Below, piece by piece: positions 31,155-46,189 of a stretch of 64,000 bases of DNA. The notes under the pieces were generated by a model. It saw only the letters and a list, made by a program, of their open reading frames with translations, was not told where the DNA came from and ran no database searches. Made by a program: the position numbers and the translations under genes. Source of the stretch: Clostridia bacterium (GTDB lineage: Bacteria; Bacillota; Clostridia; Oscillospirales; CAG-382); assembly GCA_017537345.1 (NCBI GenBank), contig JAFYKY010000023.1, forward strand, positions 1-64,000, given 5' to 3'. How positions within the stretch are numbered: position 1 is the first letter of the stretch; every line of letters starts with the position of its first letter.

Positions 31155-31556
31155 TTAGCCTTGTTCGCCTTCGCCGCCGGTTGTGCCGCCCTGAGCGGGA
31201 GTGTTAGTAACAGCCGTCCAAGCGCTTTCGGATTCTGCAGCTGCATCCCAGTAATAGCCAGTGGTAGGATCATTTTCCATAGCTACAGGAGGATTGTCGA
31301 TTTCGCCATTGGTGATCTGATAATAGTCATCATCCATCTTGATAACAATCTCATCGCTAACGTTACCGTTTTCAGCAGCCCATACAGTATATTCAGTATA
31401 CTCATTTCTAAGTTCCTGAAGAAGCTTAGCGTTGTTTGCCTTCTGGATCATGTTACCGAAGGTAGGAATAAGTACGGTTGCGAGAATTGCGATAACTGCA
31501 ATTACGATAACGAGCTCAACGATAGTAAAGCCCTTGCGGTTGTTCTTCTTGTTCAT
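31155..31556 (-). CDS. Major type IV pilin (PilA-like)
   Basis: A 133-residue prepilin. NNRKG precedes FTIVELVIVIAVIAILATVL, a model type IV pilin N-terminus with Phe at +1 and Glu at +5. The head ends with a Thr/Gly-rich tail (GGTTGGEGEQG) and has no Cys pair, as in several clostridial pilins. It is first in the operon, closest to the promoter, with a GAAGGAG ribosome site. That suggests it is the main subunit. Confidence 0.93.
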   Translation of the reverse strand: MNKKNNRKGFTIVELVIVIAVIAILATVLIPTFGNMIQKANNAKLLQELRNEYTEYTVWAAENGNVSDEIVIKMDDDYYQITNGEIDNPPVAMENDPTTGYYWDAAAESESAWTAVTNTPAQGGTTGGEGEQG

Positions 31557-31683: not shown

Positions 31684-32095
<412 letters not shown>

Positions 32096-32148
32096 ATTTT
32101 ATATGGACTATCCCATAGATAACAATTGCCTAACATAAACAATAAAAG

Positions 32149-32394
32149 TTAAACTTCGTAATTTGAAAGAAACTCATCAATTACTGAATCCAATTCACAT
32201 GCTGGTGTATTATTGGTGTTGCACTTAATTGTTAATGCTTGGGCGGTACCAAGATCTCCGGTAAGGTCTGCGACGGTGCGTATTACTATAGGAGGCAGCT
32301 CGGTTATATCCAAAGCAGCAATACCGTATCTTACAAATTCCGTATCCCCGAAATAAACATTTTTAACAAGTATATATTTATGTAGTATCATCAT
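32149..32394 (-). CDS. DUF6514-like small protein
   Basis: About 81 residues. YGIAALDI in the middle, a basic/polar beta region and a final SVIDEFLSNYE match what I recall of DUF6514 proteins, which end in an acidic helix after a Cys-Asn pair (here KCNTNN). It starts within the end of the XRE gene upstream, so the two are translationally coupled. An alternative ATG lies at 32412. The function is unknown. Confidence 0.5.
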   Translation of the reverse strand: MMILHKYILVKNVYFGDTEFVRYGIAALDITELPPIVIRTVADLTGDLGTAQALTIKCNTNNTPACELDSVIDEFLSNYEV

Positions 32395-32659
32395 TTTCCA
32401 GCCAGGCTTCATCTAACTTTTTTCGCAGAATATCAAACAAATCTACTTTTTGCGCGTTATCTTCAAGAACATAGATGATATATATTATCAAAGTTACCGC
32501 ACTGCATAAAGAAAGTCCTTTTTCTATATCGGCGTATGAACGATCGTCCATCGCAAGTTTTTCTGCCATTTTCTTCTTCGTCCACTTGTTTTTAACACGA
32601 GTTTCAGATATCTGTTTGCACAAATGCTCCTTTATCACTATGTGCGCAGTTTTCCTCAT
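32378..32659 (-). CDS. XRE-like helix-turn-helix protein
   Basis: A 93-residue protein. The HTH lies in about residues 20-60 (WTKKKMAEKLAMDDRSYADI then EKGLSLCSA), matching the Cro/CI pattern. The C-terminal 30 residues are an acidic helix. It forms a pair with the DUF6514-like gene. It may be an element regulator; the target is unknown. Confidence 0.7.
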   Translation of the reverse strand: MRKTAHIVIKEHLCKQISETRVKNKWTKKKMAEKLAMDDRSYADIEKGLSLCSAVTLIIYIIYVLEDNAQKVDLFDILRKKLDEAWLENDDTT

Positions 32660-32757
32660 ATTCAGTCCTCAATTTCTGCTAGCAGACATATTTTACCATT
32701 TATTTCGGAACTGTACATGAGGTGCACCTCCGGTTTTGCTTAAGATTTTATTCTAAA

Positions 32758-32787
32758 TAAATGCCTCCCAAAATCAGGAGGCATTTA
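32758..32787 (-). terminator. Terminator of the lipoprotein operon
   Basis: TAAATGCCTCC and GGAGGCATTTA pair perfectly around an 8-base loop, just after the minus-strand lipoprotein gene. Confidence 0.8.
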
Positions 32788-32836
32788 TACGTTATGTTTT
32801 TGCAATAGATTATAATGAGAAAATTGATTTATTAAA

Positions 32837-33817
32837 CTATTGTATTACGGCGTACTCGGAATCAAAAGTATAGTAAAACCTATTGAGTATATTTTCACTG
32901 ATACTTCCGTCTTCGTATACAACATCAAACTCAAGGAAGTATTTCACAGAAAATGTGCCTATTTCCGGCATATAAATAATTTCCATAGGTAAATTAGATG
33001 GAATTTTGTAGTCAACTATGTCTACAACTTTTTTAGTGTAATATATATTGTTTTCAGCATAGTATTCTTCCATCAATTCGATTGCTGCATTCAAGTATTC
33101 TTCGTAAGTAAAATTCGGAACGTACTTCGGAGTTTTGTCAAAGTTAGTATACCAAAAAATATTTCCGCATTTATCCATCACAATTTCTATCGTTGAAACT
33201 TGTATGGAGTTGATATATTTATAAAAAACGATCGTATAATCGCCGTCGTTCTCATCTTCCTCGATTGCGACAGTATAATCGTTCAAATCAGTAATCGGTG
33301 AAAATTCATTAACGAAATTTTCTGCAACAATAATTGCTTTTTCGGAAGAGATTTCCTCTGTTTTTTCAATGTAACCTTCGCATTCATTAGGCCTGAGTAT
33401 TAAAAAAGACGTTAATTCATTGGTGATTGAGTTTACGGTTACTATATTATAATAATTTTTATAAAAAACCCTATCGTAAGGGAACTCAAACTGCTTGCTG
33501 CAATCATATGGGAGTTCAATGGAAACGCCTAATACGTTAAGGGTATAAGAAGTACCAACACGTTCTTCGTCAACAAAATCGTTTATTTTGTGATAGTAAT
33601 CCGCATTATCGGGATGAACATATCCGTACCCGAGGAGTACATTTTCGGGATCAAACTGAGGTTCGTCAATAACTGTTTCCGAGGTATTCGAAAGCGATTC
33701 TTCCGATGTAACATTGGAAATGGATTGATTGTTATCTGCGGGTGGTTCAATCATATTATTGCAACCTGCTAAAATTATTACTAATAAAAGTATTGCCAAT
33801 ATTTTGAAATGTTTCAT
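32837..33817 (-). CDS. Lipoprotein partner of the chimeric DNRLRE/caspase-like protein
   Basis: A 326-residue lipoprotein. The leader ends IILAGC, a lipobox, followed by a Ser/Glu-rich linker. The mature region (about 90-320) is acidic, rich in Tyr and beta strands, with two PepSY-like segments, one near 145-210 (ALKA-like helix AIIVAENFVNEF followed by strands). The start overlaps the stop of the upstream large gene as ATGA, so the two proteins are made together. I do not recognise a precise family. It should be anchored on the outer face of the membrane. Confidence 0.75.
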   Translation of the reverse strand: MKHFKILAILLLVIILAGCNNMIEPPADNNQSISNVTSEESLSNTSETVIDEPQFDPENVLLGYGYVHPDNADYYHKINDFVDEERVGTSYTLNVLGVSIELPYDCSKQFEFPYDRVFYKNYYNIVTVNSITNELTSFLILRPNECEGYIEKTEEISSEKAIIVAENFVNEFSPITDLNDYTVAIEEDENDGDYTIVFYKYINSIQVSTIEIVMDKCGNIFWYTNFDKTPKYVPNFTYEEYLNAAIELMEEYYAENNIYYTKKVVDIVDYKIPSNLPMEIIYMPEIGTFSVKYFLEFDVVYEDGSISENILNRFYYTFDSEYAVIQ

Positions 33818-36800
33818 TGAGATTCCTCCATGTATTCTCTAATTTTAATAGTTGCGTCTCCTGATATTTTTACTATAGTAGATGATACTCCTGATTCTGA
33901 ACATGCATATGAAACGGCATCTTCGATTGTTGAATTACAATGTGTCTCTATATTTTCTTCAACTTCAACGAATTCAGGCATAAGATATTTAAATAAAGCG
34001 TCTTGAAACTTTCCAGCTTCTTCTATACCAACTTCTGTTTTAAAACCGACAACTGTTTTAGCACCTTTCATATGTGTTATTTCCATTAGGTTGCAATCAT
34101 TATCGTAAATACTCGCTCCATTACATAGCGTATATATGACGAGATCGCAATAACCAAAATAACCATTATGTAGGGTTAAAATATCATTTTTGTTTGGCTG
34201 AGACGATGCGCCTTGGTATCCGTTGGGGAAACGTTGATCGCAAGTTATTTTTAGGTTCTCATCAATTCCAGAAACGGATATACTTGTTGATGTTCCGTGG
34301 GTTGTGATAACAAATATTTTTGAGCTTCTCATCATTTCAAAAAATGTTATGTCAAAATTTTGTCCATCTAATTCTATATAATCAGAACCCTGGGCCGTGA
34401 AATTCACATAGCGTTTATCACATGAAAGTTGCCATTCATCCATTAAATCATTAAACAGAGCTCCATTATCAAAATTAACATCATTTAATATCTTAACATA
34501 TCTTCCGCCAACTAATGGATTAGTACTACTGTAGCCGGGCAAAGGCATATCTTCACATATCACATTTACTAATAGTGTTGTTGTAGCCACGACAGTTGTT
34601 CCGTTGACCTTTGCTTCACCATATATTCCAACAGTGAATGAACCGGTAGGGTGAGCCATTTCCATTGAATCTGAATATGCGGGGTTTATTTTTATAACAC
34701 CGTCGGTGCTCACTCCTACATGCACCGGGTAAAAATCATCATACAATGAATCTACAAGTTGCGCTGTATACGTAAAAGTAGCCTCTACTACAGAATCATT
34801 GTAATGGAATTCAGGCGATATGGTATAACTTCTATCAGAATTTCGGTTACTATCATTATTTAAAGTGATTGTCCTAACAGGGAGACTGATGTAAGCAGTT
34901 TCGTCTTCGCCAGAAGTAGTTTGAGTAACCGAAAGAGTAATTTGGCAACTTATATTGGTATCGTTATATCTAGCAGTAATGATAGTTGTTCCGGGATTTT
35001 TAGCAAGAATAAGCCCAGAGGAAGAATCGATAGTTGCGATATCGGTTTTGCTGGAATTAAATGTGATCTGTCCCGTGCTTGGAACAATATTATCACCTAT
35101 CCACAAAGTTGCCTTAGCAGTATATGTTTCACCACATTCAAGCACAAGGTTACCGTGATACATACAAACCATAGGTGTGAGATCGGTGTATGTGAAAACA
35201 ACGTAAGGTTTGTTTGTGTCACTTTCCGTAGATGCAAATGTTTTTGCATATTCAGCGGAAGATAGATTTTGAGCGCGTATCATAATGCCTTTTGCAAATT
35301 CATCGGAATTAGTTTTCCAGGAATTAAAAGCTTCGGTGATATCAAAACTGTAGTATTGATTAGTGGCGCTTACAACTGTACTCCCCAACGTTGTACCTAT
35401 ATCGTGGTACCCGATGTTCAAACATGTAGCTTCTACCTCAGTCCAGTTTCCTTCACCTGCATGTTTGTGTATGAGTAGTGTGTTTTCTGTAGTGTTGGCC
35501 GAATTATTGTAAAGGTATAGCTCAACTCTGGTTACATTATAATACTGGTTTGTTACTGCGTAGTTATTTAGAATTGTTGGAAATCTGAAATACATACGTC
35601 CCGCACCCAGTTGGCTGTCGATTCCGACCTTCAAAGTAGTGGAACCGCCGTGGTAGCCCGAAGTTTCGGTAGAGTATACGGTAGCGTCCAGTATATTGGC
35701 AGCAGTTAAGTTATTGGTCATTTCAAACGTAGGATCGATAGTTACGGGATATTGAGTAGTTTCACTTGTCAAGAACGAACGGTCGGCATGTATGGTTAAA
35801 ATGTATTTGTTATCAGTTTCTATAGCTTTTAGTGTCATACAACCGGTTGCCGTATTACCTGCGGCATCATAAATGATAACATCACCAAAAGAACCGCAGA
35901 TCTCACCGGTCAAAGGGTCGGAAAGATAATATTTTCCAAAGGATTGTATAACGGAATATCCGTTTGTTGTAAGCAAAAATGAAAAACTGTCTGTGCCGGT
36001 GTATTCTTCGAGAATGATATCTTCTTTAACACCGGATAATAAGGGGGTGTATTTTACTGAAGTTTTGCTTCCGAATACACCGTAGTATGTATCGCGATCA
36101 ACGTTTAATAATTCGCAAACGCGGTTAATGCTTATTTTGCGAGAACTCCAATCTAACCATATCCGTAATACCCAATTGAGTTTTTTATGTAATAAAGCTA
36201 TATACATTACGATGGACACAAATTCGCCCACAGACATTCTTTGTGAATATATTAGATATATTGATACACAATATACAACAATAGAAGTACTAAGATTTAA
36301 CGCATATATGATTTTTTCAACTGTTATGTCAATTCTTTTCATTCGGTTACCCAATCGAATGAATTTTTGAAGTGTTTTTTCGATTTTTGATTTTATAGTG
36401 TTACCGGAACCCAATAATTTAATTTGCCAAATATGATCAAATACTTCTAGTAAAAATCCAGTGAAAAATCCATATGTTTTTTTATGTTCTTGTGAACAGG
36501 CTTCATTTTGTTTTTTAAAACATGAGGTAATCAATGCTGGAAACATTGCTGCAACGACCACAAATATCGCCATATAAATACTGTGTTTACCAATTATTAG
36601 CGTAATAACAAAACATAGTGCGAGGGAATTGGTGAAATGAAATACATTCTTTGTGATCATATGAATAAGCTGATCACAATCGTATTCTATTCTACACATC
36701 ATATCTCCAGTATTTTCGCAGAGTTTAGAATTTGCTTTGGCATGTAAAACAGCTGAGAACGCCTCCTTTTTTATATCGACTACAAAGCCGTTGTATAATT

Positions 36801-37053
36801 TCTGCCACGAATATTGATATATGAATTTGAAAACTATATTTATGGCGAGCAAAGCAATATAAGAAATTGCAACATTAGGAATTAAATCATAGCTTTTATT
36901 TATTATTATGGAATCGATAATTATTTTTATATTTCTGGGCAAAAGGAAAGAAATTACATATCCGACAACTAGACTTGCTTCGGATGTGATAAAAAATATT
37001 GTGTATTTTTTTGCGTGTTTCATTAACCAATGGACATTTCTTATTTCCTTCAT
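33814..37053 (-). CDS. Chimeric protein: ABC-exporter membrane domain fused to DNRLRE, Big2 and caspase-like domains
   Basis: A 1079-residue unbroken frame. Residues 1-320 are an ABC exporter membrane domain (six helices; ENTGDMMCRIEYDCDQ matches the TMD coupling region; RISINRVCELL-like helix at its end) with no nucleotide-binding domain after it. At about residue 320-330 the chain switches to a secreted-protein sequence (VKYTPLLSGVKEDIILEEY), then DNRLRE (about 455-625), a Big2 repeat (640-710), and a caspase-like/CHAT-type domain (850-1055) with candidate His920 in VITTHG and Cys978 in TLCNG. Base composition changes at the junction. The topology would leave the surface modules in the cytosol, so it may be a recombination product. 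GGAG precedes the ATG at 37053. Confidence 0.85.
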   Translation of the reverse strand: MKEIRNVHWLMKHAKKYTIFFITSEASLVVGYVISFLLPRNIKIIIDSIIINKSYDLIPNVAISYIALLAINIVFKFIYQYSWQKLYNGFVVDIKKEAFSAVLHAKANSKLCENTGDMMCRIEYDCDQLIHMITKNVFHFTNSLALCFVITLIIGKHSIYMAIFVVVAAMFPALITSCFKKQNEACSQEHKKTYGFFTGFLLEVFDHIWQIKLLGSGNTIKSKIEKTLQKFIRLGNRMKRIDITVEKIIYALNLSTSIVVYCVSIYLIYSQRMSVGEFVSIVMYIALLHKKLNWVLRIWLDWSSRKISINRVCELLNVDRDTYYGVFGSKTSVKYTPLLSGVKEDIILEEYTGTDSFSFLLTTNGYSVIQSFGKYYLSDPLTGEICGSFGDVIIYDAAGNTATGCMTLKAIETDNKYILTIHADRSFLTSETTQYPVTIDPTFEMTNNLTAANILDATVYSTETSGYHGGSTTLKVGIDSQLGAGRMYFRFPTILNNYAVTNQYYNVTRVELYLYNNSANTTENTLLIHKHAGEGNWTEVEATCLNIGYHDIGTTLGSTVVSATNQYYSFDITEAFNSWKTNSDEFAKGIMIRAQNLSSAEYAKTFASTESDTNKPYVVFTYTDLTPMVCMYHGNLVLECGETYTAKATLWIGDNIVPSTGQITFNSSKTDIATIDSSSGLILAKNPGTTIITARYNDTNISCQITLSVTQTTSGEDETAYISLPVRTITLNNDSNRNSDRSYTISPEFHYNDSVVEATFTYTAQLVDSLYDDFYPVHVGVSTDGVIKINPAYSDSMEMAHPTGSFTVGIYGEAKVNGTTVVATTTLLVNVICEDMPLPGYSSTNPLVGGRYVKILNDVNFDNGALFNDLMDEWQLSCDKRYVNFTAQGSDYIELDGQNFDITFFEMMRSSKIFVITTHGTSTSISVSGIDENLKITCDQRFPNGYQGASSQPNKNDILTLHNGYFGYCDLVIYTLCNGASIYDNDCNLMEITHMKGAKTVVGFKTEVGIEEAGKFQDALFKYLMPEFVEVEENIETHCNSTIEDAVSYACSESGVSSTIVKISGDATIKIREYMEESQ

Positions 37054-37389
37054 CAAAGAACTCCAACATAAAAATATTATTAGTAATAGAATAGCGTTTT
37101 TTATTAATCGTATAACAAAGAGAAAAGCAATTGTTTTTTTGCGATTTGGAAATTCGTATATCGATCAAATTATGAAATACAGTATGTATTTTTATTATCG
37201 AACTACAAAAAAGAATTGTCTTTGACGATTTGTGGCTCTTGTTTATTTTCATTAAGAACACTATCTGTGTCAAAAATGATCTGCTACTTTTTAATATTGT
37301 CGATTTTTGCAAAAGTCTATGCTATCAGCATAAAGTAAGGGCGGTTCATTATTGATAAAATAAGCAAAATAGCTTATGAGGTGTAATGT
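37054..37389. other. AT-rich intergenic region upstream of the chimeric gene
   Basis: About 335 bases, strongly AT-rich. Overlapping frames on both strands lack recognisable motifs. A short minus-strand frame (about 25 codons ending TAG near 37218) looks like the tail of some protein but has no start. A small hairpin, TATGCTATCAGCATA, lies near 37318-37332. I see no clear sigma-A promoter. Confidence 0.5.
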
Positions 37390-37761
37390 ATGAATGCTGA
37401 TGAAAAAACTAATAAGATGTCAGAGGAAGAGATAATATATTATAAAAAGTTAGGAGAAACATTGCGTGCATTGATCAAAATGAAAGGCTATACTCAGTTG
37501 GATTTTGCGTGTAGCGTTGACATTTCTTATCCGATGTTATTAAATCATCTTCAAGGTACTAGACGTATGGGTGCTTATAAGTTGTCAAAAATTTGTCGTG
37601 CTTTAGAAATAGATAACATTGACATAATCGCTTTGACTGTTCCAGATATTTTTGTTGAGGGAAAAACTGAATTATATACAGAACTTTTTGGGAAGTTAGC
37701 AAGCAGAGATGCAGAGGCCATTCGAAAGGTTATTGAATTATTAGACGAAGGCGAAATATGA
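37390..37761 (+). CDS. XRE family transcriptional regulator
   Basis: A 123-residue protein. An HTH of the Cro/CI type occupies residues 20-75 (LGETLRALIKMKGYTQLDFA, SYPMLLNHLQGTRRM). The C-terminal 40 residues form an amphipathic helix. It stands 78 bases before the sigma gene on the same strand and could belong to that cassette or be independent. It has no clear terminator of its own. Confidence 0.75.
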   Translation: MNADEKTNKMSEEEIIYYKKLGETLRALIKMKGYTQLDFACSVDISYPMLLNHLQGTRRMGAYKLSKICRALEIDNIDIIALTVPDIFVEGKTELYTELFGKLASRDAEAIRKVIELLDEGEI

Positions 37762-37805
37762 TTTCGATTTTCTGCCCTCAATAAACTAATGACATATTTT
37801 GGCAT

Positions 37806-37820
37806 ATACCTCTATAAAAA
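37806..37820. repeat. Left arm of a 15-bp inverted repeat flanking the sigma gene
   Basis: ATACCTCTATAAAAA here is the exact reverse complement of the sequence at 38406-38420. The arms lie just before and just after the sigma-like gene. They could be a regulatory site or a long-range mRNA stem. Confidence 0.85.
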
Positions 37821-37838
37821 TGTAAAGGAGTGGATTTT

Positions 37839-38393
37839 TTGTTAAAAAGATTAAGAAACGCAAGGGAACTCACTACTGCCGAGCGTGAATTTCTTGGCAA
37901 CCTGCTTGAAAAAAACAAACCGCTATTGTTGCATGTGATTAAAATCATAACTGGAAAACTTTATAATACGTTGGGCGAGGAATGTTTGAGCGAGCTACAT
38001 TGCTTGACCATTAGAAAAATAGATAAGCTAATCGCTAAAGAGAATCCTGACAGATGGTTGATTACTGCGGCTAAGTACATAGCGTTGGAACTTATGCGCA
38101 GATATAAAAATGAGCCCGATACTGTTCTAATTTGGGATGTTGCTGATCAACTTGTAATGGATGATGTTTTCGAGGAAGCGAGATACAACATTTGGATGGA
38201 GCAGCATGTATTAGATAAGCTTCCGCTAAAATTAACAAATCGTGAGAGACAGATATATAATCTGATGATTATACAAAAAATGTCTTGTGAAGATGTTGCG
38301 CGAGAATTAAATATAAGTGAAAGTACAGCGTGGAATATAAGAGCGGCTGTAGTTAAGAAAATTGAAAAAATAATAAAAAACGATCTTTTTTAA
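37839..38393 (+). CDS. Sigma-70 family (ECF-like) RNA polymerase sigma factor
   Basis: About 184 residues. Region 2-like helices (NKPLLLHVIKIITGKLYNTL, RWLITAAKYIALELMRRYK) are followed by a linker and a region 4 HTH (KLTNRERQIYNLMIIQKMS, VARELNISESTAWNIRAAV). I favour the TTG at 37839, because AAAGGAG ends 8 bases upstream; the in-frame GTG at 37830 overlaps the ribosome site itself. It is followed by a membrane protein with the features of an anti-sigma factor. The pair probably responds to a surface signal. Confidence 0.85.
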   Translation: MLKRLRNARELTTAEREFLGNLLEKNKPLLLHVIKIITGKLYNTLGEECLSELHCLTIRKIDKLIAKENPDRWLITAAKYIALELMRRYKNEPDTVLIWDVADQLVMDDVFEEARYNIWMEQHVLDKLPLKLTNRERQIYNLMIIQKMSCEDVARELNISESTAWNIRAAVVKKIEKIIKNDLF

Positions 38394-38405
38394 TAAAAAT
38401 GAAAC

Positions 38406-38420
38406 TTTTTATAGAGGTAT
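38406..38420. repeat. Right arm of the 15-bp inverted repeat flanking the sigma gene
   Basis: TTTTTATAGAGGTAT is the perfect reverse complement of 37806-37820. It lies in the gap between the sigma gene and its presumed anti-sigma gene, 40-55 bases before that start. Confidence 0.85.
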
Positions 38421-38460
38421 TCATATTTGAATATCATTAGTTATATGAGGAGGTAGTAAA

Positions 38461-39330
38461 GTGTTTGATAAAGATATTCTTGATAATCTCAAAGGTCAAG
38501 AGATTAAGGAGTTGATTGTCGCCAAAAAAATTAAATTAGAAGAGCTTGATACCTCGGCTTTGGAAAAATTATTAGATTACGAAACAGATATGCTTTGTCT
38601 TGATATGGGAGATATGGAACTTATCCACGCTTGTGCTGCTCGTTTAGACGAGCTGAACGGTCCCGTAATGACTGACGAAGAATTTTGGAGTATAATCAAA
38701 AAAGCTGAGGAACGGATGATATCCGGCGAAAAAGAAAACACTCCTGTGGATGCGCCTGTAAACGCACCCGCAAGAGTAGTAAAAAAGAGAAGAATTTGGA
38801 AGAAGGTATGGCTTGTTGCGGCTATAGTAGCTTTGCTTATATCCGCTGCAACAATGACCGCATCTGCTTTTGGATTTAATATCTTTGAATATTTTAAAGA
38901 GGTAATGGACTTATCCGTAGGAGGAAAAGTGGATAAAGGTACCGTTACTTTAATAAATCGCGGCGAAGCAAAAGAATATGATTCAATGGAAGAGTTGTTA
39001 ATAGAGGAGAATATGGATATCCTTTATCCTTCTGTGCTTCCTGAAAGTATTCGGGTCACTACTATTAAAACAAATAGTGATCCAAGTGGTGAAGACCTTA
39101 TACAAGTGTATACGAATGATAATAGCATTTATTTTGCAGTATATACCAATCGTTCATCAACCGATAGCTCATTTAAAGGTTGCGAAAAACATAATTATAA
39201 TGGTTTTACTTTCTATGTGAGAAAGGATATCAATTCTGCGTATTGCTATTATAATAATTGTTATTATTCGATAAGTGCGAATAATTATGAAAACTTATTA
39301 TTAATTATAAGAAATTTTAAGGAGAAATAA
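38461..39330 (+). CDS. Membrane-anchored anti-sigma-like protein with DUF4367-like domain
   Basis: A 289-residue protein. The cytosolic N-terminal 110 residues contain three acidic helices, then a basic KKRR stretch and one membrane helix (about 118-140: VWLVAAIVALLISAATMTAS). The extracellular C-terminal domain has DUF4367-like strands (ILYPSVLPESIRVTTI, IYFAVYTN, NGFTFYVR). This topology is that of a one-pass anti-sigma factor. It starts with GTG after AGGAGGT and follows the sigma gene by 67 bases. It should hold the sigma factor at the membrane until a signal arrives. Confidence 0.8.
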   Translation: MFDKDILDNLKGQEIKELIVAKKIKLEELDTSALEKLLDYETDMLCLDMGDMELIHACAARLDELNGPVMTDEEFWSIIKKAEERMISGEKENTPVDAPVNAPARVVKKRRIWKKVWLVAAIVALLISAATMTASAFGFNIFEYFKEVMDLSVGGKVDKGTVTLINRGEAKEYDSMEELLIEENMDILYPSVLPESIRVTTIKTNSDPSGEDLIQVYTNDNSIYFAVYTNRSSTDSSFKGCEKHNYNGFTFYVRKDINSAYCYYNNCYYSISANNYENLLLIIRNFKEK

Positions 39331-43004: not shown

Positions 43005-45176
43005 TCACGAAGCATCTGCAGTAATTAAATCATAGGTATAATTCACAGCGTTTGAGGTGAGTCCAGCGGCCACTGTGCGTACTGTTCCGATAATTACTTC
43101 TTTTTTCACATTAACGAGTTTGGATGTATACATAGCTATCTTTTTGGGTGATACAGCTGTTTTGAGTATTTGCTTTGAGGTGTTTGAAATACCTCTTAAT
43201 TTTGCTCCATCAACTCCGCGGCCACCTACAATCCCAGATATTACACCTACACCAACAGAAACGCCAAAATCAAAGGCGTTAACATCTTCTCCAGTGATTG
43301 CACAGTTTGCTAAATATGTTGCCCCGCTTAAAGCCGCGTTGGCGGCGATGGCTACGCCTATGCCAACTCCAGACGCAGCTAGAGCACCACTCAATGCAGC
43401 GCATCCATAATCAGCCCAAGTAGAAGTTGGCTTAAGTGATTCGCCAAAGCTTTTCCCGTCGATTAGATTAGTTACAACATCAGATACATATTGTGTTGCA
43501 ACTCCAACGACCGCTCCCACAATAATATGCCAAAAAGCTCCATTGTCATCTTTGCGCATAATAGGGTTATTATCGCAATAGGCAAACAGATTCTTATCGG
43601 TCATTTCAATAGGAGTCGCAGTTAAAACAATTGCTTTGTCAGCACTTATAAACCTACCAACTTCAGCATCGTAGTAACGGCTATTAAGGTAGTACAAATC
43701 GGTTTCACTATCGTAGTAGTAACCACGGTATCTGAACGGGTTGTACTGCCCCAAAGTGGATGCCATGGAACCGGTTACAGAGAGAATGTTGCCCCAAGCG
43801 TCATAGGTGTATTCAACAACAACAGCTCCGCCGGCATTACATATACGAAGAATATCGCCCTGAATGTTCTTTTGGAAATAGTAAGGCGTTCCGTTATAGT
43901 GTAAACCGGTTATACTACCGTTGGCGTCATAGACGTAGTACAGAGTATAACTGTTGTAATATGCATTATCTGTAACGGTTTCAGACAGTATTTTACTGCC
44001 GTCAAGCACATAATCGTGAGTGATGTAAGCACTTGCAACATCGTCAAACATACGCTTCTGAGTGCGTATGCCCTCAGAATTGTATTTATAGGTAATGGAG
44101 ATGCCGTTTGTGAGTGTTTGCGAGGTGAGCGTTCTTCCGTTCCAAATAAGAGAGGAAGAGTTACGCCATTTTGTAGGGTTGCCAATACTATCGTAAGTGA
44201 TCGCAGTACCATCGTAATTGGTGAGCAGATCTCCCCAAGAAGAGGTGGAATAGGTGTAATTAATAGTATCGGTAAGATTTCCGATATCACCGGTAAAAAC
44301 AAGCTTTTGGGTTATATTACCTGATTTATCGTAAGAATAGATATATATTTGGTTATTAACCGTTTCACCTACAAGCTGACCTAATGCATCATAGCTGTAA
44401 GTAGAAATCGTTGTGCCGTTTTTCTTTACGTTGGTAATATATCCAAGTGCGTTATACGTGTATTCGTAAACCTCCGCGGTTTCCACATCGGTACTGCCGC
44501 GCTTGTTTTCAAAAGTAAGCTTTGAAACAAGAGGTGTGGTATATATCTTTCCGCCTTTAGTATATGTGTAGTACTCGTACTTTTCGTATATATCCGCAAG
44601 AGTGGAAAGCGAAGAATCCTTTACGGTAAGTCTATCAAAATTATCATAAGTATAATTGATAGCAGACATAACACCGGATTCAGGCATGCTCATGCTGCTT
44701 ACGAGATTGGTGTTAGTCTTATACGAAAGCGAATACGAAAGCGTCTTGTTGCCGATCTTGATTTTAGATCCTTTCGCTCTGCCGTATTCATCATAGCTGT
44801 TTTCAACGGCAAAGATGGTGTTGCCGCTTGCATCCTTCTGGTATGCACGGATAAGACGGTCAAGAGAATCGTATTCATAAAGGTAGGTAATACCCGCTTT
44901 GCCGTCAACAGCTTTTGCAAGTCTTCCGTTGGAATCGTAAACGATAATGTAATCGTTTACACTATTGCCATTATACGTTACCTTTACCAGTCTGTCAAGA
45001 TTATCATAGGTATAATCTTCATAATCTCCGTTGCCGTAGATCATACGGGTGAGCTTTCCGTTGCCTGCTGCATAGGTGTAGGTTGCAAGAACGTTACCGC
45101 CTGCGGAAACGGATACCATATTGCCAAAAGCATCATAGGTAATGGTATACGCCGTTGTAGCAGTGTTTATACCGGA
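43005..45176 (-). pseudogene. Rhs/YD-repeat protein core with C-terminal polymorphic toxin domain, 5'-truncated
   Basis: About 724 codons of an Rhs/YD-repeat protein. Many YD units are visible (YTYDNLDRLVKVTYNGN, YEYDSLDRLIRAYQKD, YTYDAWGNILSVTG). The Rhs core ends with YYYDSETDLYYLNSRYYDAE and GRFISADKA. After MRKDDNGAFWHIIVG comes a roughly 170-residue variable C-terminus with hydrophobic helices (GVGIGVAIAANAALSGA, GVSVGVGVISGIVGG) that is probably the toxin. The frame opens near 45176 with no start codon or ribosome site; the first Met is at 45119 inside the repeats. The N-terminal part lies just upstream but in another reading frame. Confidence 0.88.
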
Positions 45177-45928
45177 AATATGCGGTGAACAACATATACA
45201 GCAGCCTTTTCATCGGGGACAACGGCAAGAGCGGTGTACTGCCACGAGGTGTTGTCGGGATTAAAAGATGCGTGGTGTTTGCTTGTGCTTCCGTCGCTGT
45301 ATCTGTCCTGTTTTTCCTTAACGATAATGTTTTCTTTTACGTTACTTCCGGAGATGATATATTCAAGGTCAGTACCGTCAAGTATATCCTTGTATATCGC
45401 ACCGGAAGAAAACTTGGTTAATGTAGTTGCAGAATCAAAAGAATCATCATCCGCAACAGTTGTTTGGGGATAAAGCTCAAGGGCTTTGGATTTATTTGCA
45501 TCGGGTAAAGACAAGCTTATCTTGTACCCGTTCATCAGTATTTTAAGTAAATTGCCGGAATTAGAGTTGTTGGCAAGCTTGATGGATATATCGGATTCTA
45601 ACGTGCCGTATCCTGCTATATCTTCGCTGTCAACAGCGTCGGAATAGGACAACGTATTATCATAATCCTGCCAATATCCGTTTTCGTCGGAGTAATGGAT
45701 AGGTTTACCGTAGTCTGCCGCAACAAAACTGCCGTCAGACATACGGAAAGTTTTACTGCTCTCTGTACGAGAGTCGATAACTTCACCGAGAACGTACACG
45801 TCCCCGTCGGAGACAGGTACTGTTTCGGACTCATTGGTCAGTAAATCGTTCAACGCTTCACTTGCTTCTGCCAAAACAGACTGCGGAATCGCACAGAAAA
45901 GCATAGCAAGGAAGAGAATCATTGCTGT
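45167..45928 (-). pseudogene. N-terminal part of an Rhs/WapA-like secreted protein, truncated at both ends
   Basis: A frame of about 250 codons. MILFLAMLFCAIPQSVLAEA is the hydrophobic core and cleavage region of a signal peptide, followed by the usual start of clostridial Rhs proteins (YVLGEVIDSRTESSKTFRMS, YGKPIHYSDENGYWQDYDNT, DLEYIISGSNVKENIIV). The ORF could begin further up at 45949, but that part overlaps a DUF6809 gene on the other strand, so the genuine n-region is lost. At the other end the frame runs out at 45167, in a different frame from the Rhs core that follows. The DNRLRE middle part is missing. Confidence 0.82.
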
Positions 45929-46189
45929 TACGGCAACATCAGTCCACACGAAAGGTACATCAAACGAGGAACGAGAGTTGACAAGATCGTCAAACTGATA
46001 TGCAAAAACGAGGAAGAACGGAATGCAGGGCTAACCGAAAAGCAAAAAGAAACCTTTGAAAAGTTCAAGGACTGCACAAGCGAATTATCCTGTATCACCG
46101 AGCGCGAGGCGTTCAGTTCGGGATTCATCCTTGCTACTCGCATAATGGTGGAAGTGATGCAAGGCTTGGAGGAGATCGAGGATATTTAA
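45929..46189 (+). pseudogene. DUF6809-like gene, 5'-truncated
   Basis: The plus-strand frame reads YGNISPHERYIKRGTRVDKI, then LTEKQKETFEKFKDCTSELS and GFILATRIMVEVM, matching my memory of DUF6809 proteins of mobile elements (GN-x-x-P-x-E, EKFKD, GF-x-LG). The first codons are absent: upstream the strand is the antisense of an Rhs signal peptide. A terminator follows. It is the 3' remainder of a gene cut at about 45928. Confidence 0.7.

What the first reader, a model, noticed from the sequence alone, without database searches (positions are those of the whole stretch)
33814..37053. In-frame chimera of an ABC-exporter membrane domain with DNRLRE, Big2 and caspase-like domains
The first 320 residues are an ABC exporter membrane domain that stops where its nucleotide-binding domain should begin. 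The chain then continues without a stop into a surface-protein sequence: the pre-DNRLRE segment of Rhs/WapA-like proteins, DNRLRE, Big2 and a caspase-like C-terminus with His920 and Cys978 candidates. AT content is much higher before nucleotide 36,060-36,095 than after it. The topology would put surface modules in the cytosol. It could be a recent recombination joining two genes, a misassembly, or a real new fusion that couples a membrane scaffold to a cytosolic protease.
Basis: partly seen in the sequence, partly recalled or inferred. Interest (0 to 1): 0.75.

Follow-up and report, generated by a model that had tools for sequence, protein, structure and literature searches.

The report
One-off fusion of two broken genes
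In this gut-type Clostridia genome the front half of a membrane pump gene is joined in frame to the back half of a secreted, toxin-like surface protein carrying a caspase-like enzyme; every related genome keeps the two as separate complete genes, so this is most likely a single-genome accident, although the caspase-like half belongs to a real and little-described two-gene family.

Summary
The join lies at about 36,085-36,105. It cuts the ABC protein at its linker to the ATPase domain and cuts the surface protein inside its constant N-terminal domain, removing the signal peptide. All nine complete ABC relatives continue into an ATPase domain; all 14 surface relatives have the N-terminal domain instead; none is fused. 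In a congeneric species the flanks (32,789 | 37,298) are adjacent with 110 bp between them, so lipoprotein plus chimera form one 4.5-kb insert at a variable site and a join of two unrelated contigs is unlikely. Best reading: a local deletion or recombination fused two genes in one lineage and left a non-exported effector. A local assembly collapse is not excluded. The ordinary part is the more interesting one: surface proteins with this caspase-like domain nearly always precede a cognate membrane-anchored partner, resembling an effector-immunity or peptidase-inhibitor pair.

The parts
32790..37297 (.). Insert absent from congeneric genome G002, where the two flanks are joined with 110 bp between them; it holds exactly the lipoprotein gene and the chimera
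32837..33817 (-). Lipoprotein gene (326 aa, weak DUF4901/YcdB-like match, lipobox), overlapping the chimera's stop by 4 bp; conserved partner of the caspase-like domain
33814..37053 (-). Chimeric open reading frame, 1,079 aa
37061..37064 (-). GGAG ribosome-binding site 7 nt before the ATG
   Evidence: read from the sequence
36100..37053 (-). ABC exporter membrane-domain half (residues 1-318), ending where the linker to the ATPase domain begins in relatives
36085..36105 (-). Junction between ABC part and surface part (about residues 317-322)
35692..36090 (-). Second half of the constant pre-DNRLRE domain; its first half and the signal peptide are missing
35191..35697 (-). DNRLRE / CBM96 domain
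34954..35079 (-). Weak Big_2 match (below Pfam cut-off)
33850..34515 (-). C-terminal caspase-like (clan CD, CHAT-like) domain
34297..34299 (-).
34123..34125 (-).

Best explanation
The gene is a single-lineage, in-frame fusion made by a deletion or illegitimate recombination inside a variable insert. The donor genes were (i) a half-size ABC exporter, of a kind whose relative in another Clostridia genome lies in a radical-SAM peptide-type cluster, and (ii) a secreted polymorphic-toxin-like protein (signal peptide, constant pre-DNRLRE/DNRLRE region, variable C-terminal enzyme, here a caspase-like peptidase) with its cognate lipoprotein gene downstream. The join removed the exporter's ATPase domain and the effector's signal peptide and first domain half. 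If translated, the product would be a membrane stub of about six helices with the effector domains on the cytosolic side: unable to pump and unable to be exported, so probably non-functional. The downstream lipoprotein may still be made from the same transcript. Shown: frame, domains, breakpoint, absence of the fusion elsewhere, conserved partner gene, empty site, clan CD fold. Inferred: deletion as the event, loss of function, and the effector-immunity (or peptidase-inhibitor) role of the intact pair.
For: Surface homologues: 14 of 14 have the constant N-domain upstream of the position matching residue ~318, 13 with a signal-peptide-like start in the same frame, none an ABC domain. ABC relatives at 34-40% identity: all 9 complete ones run on into Walker A within about 50 residues; none has surface or lipoprotein genes in the fetched flanks. 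No leftover half in the own genome: the N-terminal half query finds only the C4 paralogue, the junction stretch itself and weak unrelated matches, and the ABC-ATPase matches show no obvious orphan that could be the missing domain. G002 joins the flanks directly. The caspase family and its partner gene occur widely without the ABC part.
Against: The frame is fully intact over 1,079 codons with a good ribosome-binding site and both active-site residues, which decay would erode unless the event is recent. No intermediate locus with both intact genes side by side was found, so the deletion is inferred. Without reads a local assembly collapse gives the same sequence.
Confidence: 0.65

Rival explanations
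1. The junction is an assembly artefact: a local collapse or a join between two strains that carry different inserts at the same site.
For: The genome is a draft in 25 contigs and probably metagenome-assembled (inferred); the fusion is seen once; both partners are abruptly cut; composition shifts near the join.
Against: Flanks of the insert are true neighbours in G002, so a join of two unrelated places is unlikely; no shared word longer than 14 nt at the junction in any sequence held (limited to fetched loci); the frame is kept; the own genome shows no detached N-terminal half and no obvious orphan ATPase domain.
Confidence: 0.22
2. A functional new protein: the ABC membrane half anchors a cytosolic caspase-like peptidase, perhaps as a self-directed or defence protease.
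For: Intact frame and start site, His/Cys pair, retained partner gene.
Against: Unique to one genome; the junction lies inside a conserved domain, so a half-domain would be exposed; relatives of the effector half are built for export; the partner lipoprotein works outside the membrane by its own signal.
Confidence: 0.07
3. The fusion was made elsewhere and imported whole as a cassette into this site.
For: Insert boundaries are clean; the left flank is 96% and the right flank 80% identical to G002, which suggests exchange in this region.
Against: No other genome searched, plasmid or species contig carries it; no transposase or integrase was seen in the insert.
Confidence: 0.06

Closest known systems
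WapA/Rhs-type polymorphic toxins of Gram-positive bacteria (DNRLRE domain in Streptococcus suis WapA-CT1, PMC12704120)
   Same: Relatives of the surface half have a signal-peptide-like start, a constant N-region with DNRLRE, variable C-terminal enzymes and a downstream partner gene
   Different: No Rhs repeats; the enzymes are mostly peptidases; this copy lacks the signal peptide and half of the constant domain
Tox-Caspase of polymorphic toxin systems (Zhang et al. 2012, PMC3482391)
   Same: Caspase fold with H and C, at the C-terminal end
   Different: The partners listed for it there (Imm36, Imm57) are not described as lipoproteins; the only lipoprotein immunity family in that survey is Imm65, tied to Tox-JAB-1
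CHAT peptidases (SAVED-CHAT 8tl0, TPR-CHAT/Craspase), separase and gingipain (clan CD)
   Same: Fold and His/Cys signature
   Different: About 9-15% identity; secreted effector context instead of CRISPR or defence complexes
ABC exporters such as the one in G172:C10 (cluster with a second ABC exporter, an AMP-binding enzyme and a radical-SAM protein)
   Same: Membrane domain, 34-40% identity
   Different: No ATPase domain here

Membership tests
ABC exporter (half transporter) | Six-helix ABC membrane domain | tested here: met
   PF00664 E 4e-26; helix count from hydropathy was rough, with 6 windows of which some overlap
ABC exporter (half transporter) | ATP-binding domain with Walker A and LSGGQ in the same chain or next to it | tested here: not met
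   Absent from the chain; on contig C23 only two sub-cut-off PF00005 matches
DNRLRE/WapA-like polymorphic toxin | DNRLRE domain after a constant N-domain | tested here: inconclusive
   DNRLRE met; only the second half of the constant domain is present
DNRLRE/WapA-like polymorphic toxin | Signal peptide for export | tested here: not met
   Replaced by the ABC domain; signal-peptide-like starts (by eye) in 13 of 14 relatives
DNRLRE/WapA-like polymorphic toxin | Variable C-terminal enzyme domains on a constant front | tested here: met
   Relatives end in M23, C39, DUF6345, caspase-like or HExxH-type domains
DNRLRE/WapA-like polymorphic toxin | Cognate immunity gene that neutralises the toxin | not testable with these tools
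   A cognate downstream gene exists; neutralisation needs an experiment
Clan CD (caspase-like) peptidase | Caspase fold with His-Gly and Cys at the ends of core strands | tested here: met
Clan CD (caspase-like) peptidase | Peptidase activity | not testable with these tools
   Needs a biochemical assay

The most novel reading that the evidence does not exclude
The fusion is expressed and functional: a membrane-anchored cytosolic caspase-like protease made by grafting a toxin-like protein's enzyme onto a pump's membrane half, with the former partner lipoprotein kept alongside, i.e. a secreted effector turned into an intracellular one.
Probability: 0.05. Interest if true: 0.75.

Novelty: new member of a known kind. 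Interest (0 to 1): 0.3.

Why it matters
As a fusion it is most likely an accident and a warning against reading domain chimeras in draft genomes as new functions. The useful by-product is a widespread pair in Clostridia: a secreted protein ending in a CHAT/caspase-like peptidase and a downstream membrane-anchored protein that tracks the peptidase type. If the pair is an effector and its immunity factor, it would add a lipoprotein-guarded caspase class to polymorphic toxins.

Tried and rejected
Search for the fusion in 60 relatives: none. Close-relative scan of 84,980 species genomes with the ABC half alone: nothing; with a three-sequence alignment: ten relatives at 34-40% identity (plus one distant), none fused. 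Search for leftover halves (N-terminal half, orphan ATPase domain) in the own genome: none found. Repeats flanking the insert or junction: nothing convincing; the 19-nt inverted pair 33776/37070 is AT-rich and one arm lies inside the lipoprotein gene, so it was not taken as an element end. Plasmid search: only separate DNRLRE or RHS proteins. The first fold with 4 sequences was poor (pLDDT 47) and was replaced by a 28-sequence run. Promoter scan: fewer sites than in shuffles, uninformative.

Full report
Observation. The frame described is present on the minus strand: ATG at 37053, a GGAG seven bases upstream, and the stop at 33814-33816; 1,079 codons. Pfam and NCBIfam find an ABC exporter membrane domain (E 4e-26), DNRLRE/CBM96 and a sub-threshold Big_2, and no ATPase domain. 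GC is 30.3% in the ABC part and 37.9% in the surface part; the best change point (LLR 9.7, 100 shuffles at most 8.3) has an interval of codons 261-377 that includes the junction but does not pin it.

The junction. Surface homologues begin to match at residues 313-326, most of them 316-322; a paralogue on contig C4 of the same genome matches from residue 318 at 67% over 36 residues. The ABC side matches relatives up to the linker before the ATPase domain. The break is therefore at about 36,085-36,105. It falls between two ABC domains, but inside the constant pre-DNRLRE domain of the surface protein.

What the two halves are elsewhere. All 14 surface homologues examined carry the missing first half of that domain, 13 of them with a signal-peptide-like start in the same frame (the frame of the fourteenth, L069, starts within the domain), and none has an ABC domain. 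Their C-terminal ends vary: M23, C39, DUF6345, HExxH-containing, nuclease-like or caspase-like ends (by eye). Among ABC relatives from 84,980 species genomes, ten match at 34-40% identity; the nine complete ones continue into an ATPase domain and none has the surface or lipoprotein genes within the fetched flanks. One lies in a cluster with a second ABC exporter, an AMP-binding enzyme and a radical-SAM protein, as expected for a peptide product (domains read by eye).

The caspase-like end. A profile from relatives finds the domain in 30 of 384 genomes of the order. In a 28-sequence alignment His919 and Cys977 are at least 90% conserved; one relative (L098) has lost the Cys. Twelve members match Pfam CHAT, three C25 and one C14. 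The profile matches solved CHAT proteins. The AlphaFold model (pLDDT 75, pTM 0.78) gives 24 Foldseek hits at E <= 0.001, all from CHAT/Craspase, separase or gingipain entries or from DdvA, itself listed as a CHAT domain protein.

The partner gene. The gene after the chimera (32837-33817, overlapping by 4 bp) is a lipoprotein. Of the caspase-group loci with profile score above 60, 20 have a gene of 190-370 aa (one cut by the locus end) starting within 120 bp of the stop; 17 have a lipobox by a simple pattern (one of these, L120, is doubtful on inspection) and the other three an N-terminal hydrophobic segment. These partners match one another in 35 pairs by BLAST and never match the partners of ten relatives from the DNRLRE set with other C-terminal ends; a profile does give two weak cross matches (E 6e-8 and 2e-5), so remote kinship is possible. 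This is the pattern of an effector with its cognate immunity protein, or of a peptidase with a dedicated inhibitor or maturation factor. Lipoprotein immunity was noted as exceptional in the polymorphic-toxin survey (PMC3482391), which also lists C-terminal caspase-like toxins.

Is the junction real? In congeneric G002 the left flank (32141-32789, 96% identity) and right flank (37298-38819, 80%) lie 110 bp apart, so lipoprotein and chimera form one insert, starting directly after a terminator-like hairpin. A join of two unrelated contigs would not put neighbouring flanks on both sides. No word longer than 14 nt is shared between the junction and any other sequence held, and neither missing half was found elsewhere in the genome. 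A local collapse or a mixture of strains with different inserts at this site remains possible.

Mechanism. Most likely an ABC exporter gene and an effector-lipoprotein pair once stood in the same orientation in this variable insert, and a deletion removed the exporter's 3' half, anything between, and the effector's 5' part, by chance in frame. The predicted product would keep the effector domains in the cytosol behind an inactive membrane stub. It is probably without function; the lipoprotein gene could still be expressed from the same transcript. The deletion, the loss of function and the role of the partner are inferences.

Verdict. Real sequence feature, correct domain reading, ordinary cause. 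The interest lies in the caspase-like effector and lipoprotein pair rather than in the fusion.

Noticed in passing
window 32837-33817 and L058, L059, L095-L100, L113-L122: Secreted proteins ending in a CHAT/caspase-like domain are followed by a membrane-anchored partner gene, mostly a lipoprotein, in nearly all loci examined; partners track the C-terminal domain type.
   Followed up: partly
L098 (G426:C96), caspase-like domain: The catalytic Cys position reads Glu/Gln while His-Gly is kept: a possible inactive member.
   Followed up: no
L005 4242-7772 (own genome, contig C4): DNRLRE/Big2/ricin-like surface protein with a nuclease-like C-terminus (VEVKNY motif, by eye) and a small gene 31 bp downstream.
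   Followed up: no
own genome C22:22763-22933: Fragment of a second caspase-like domain with an in-frame stop, probably a degraded copy.
   Followed up: no
window 31155-31556: Pilin-like gene only 54% identical to congener G003 while neighbouring pilus genes are 74-96% identical; synteny with G003 ends at 31,697.
   Followed up: no
window 43005-45949: RHS-repeat gene fragment and a following gene with separate, shuffled matches in G003 contig C22: another variable toxin-like locus.
   Followed up: no
window 32141-32789 versus 37298-38819: The two flanks of the insert differ strongly in identity to the same G002 contig (96% and 80%), suggesting exchange at this site.
   Followed up: no
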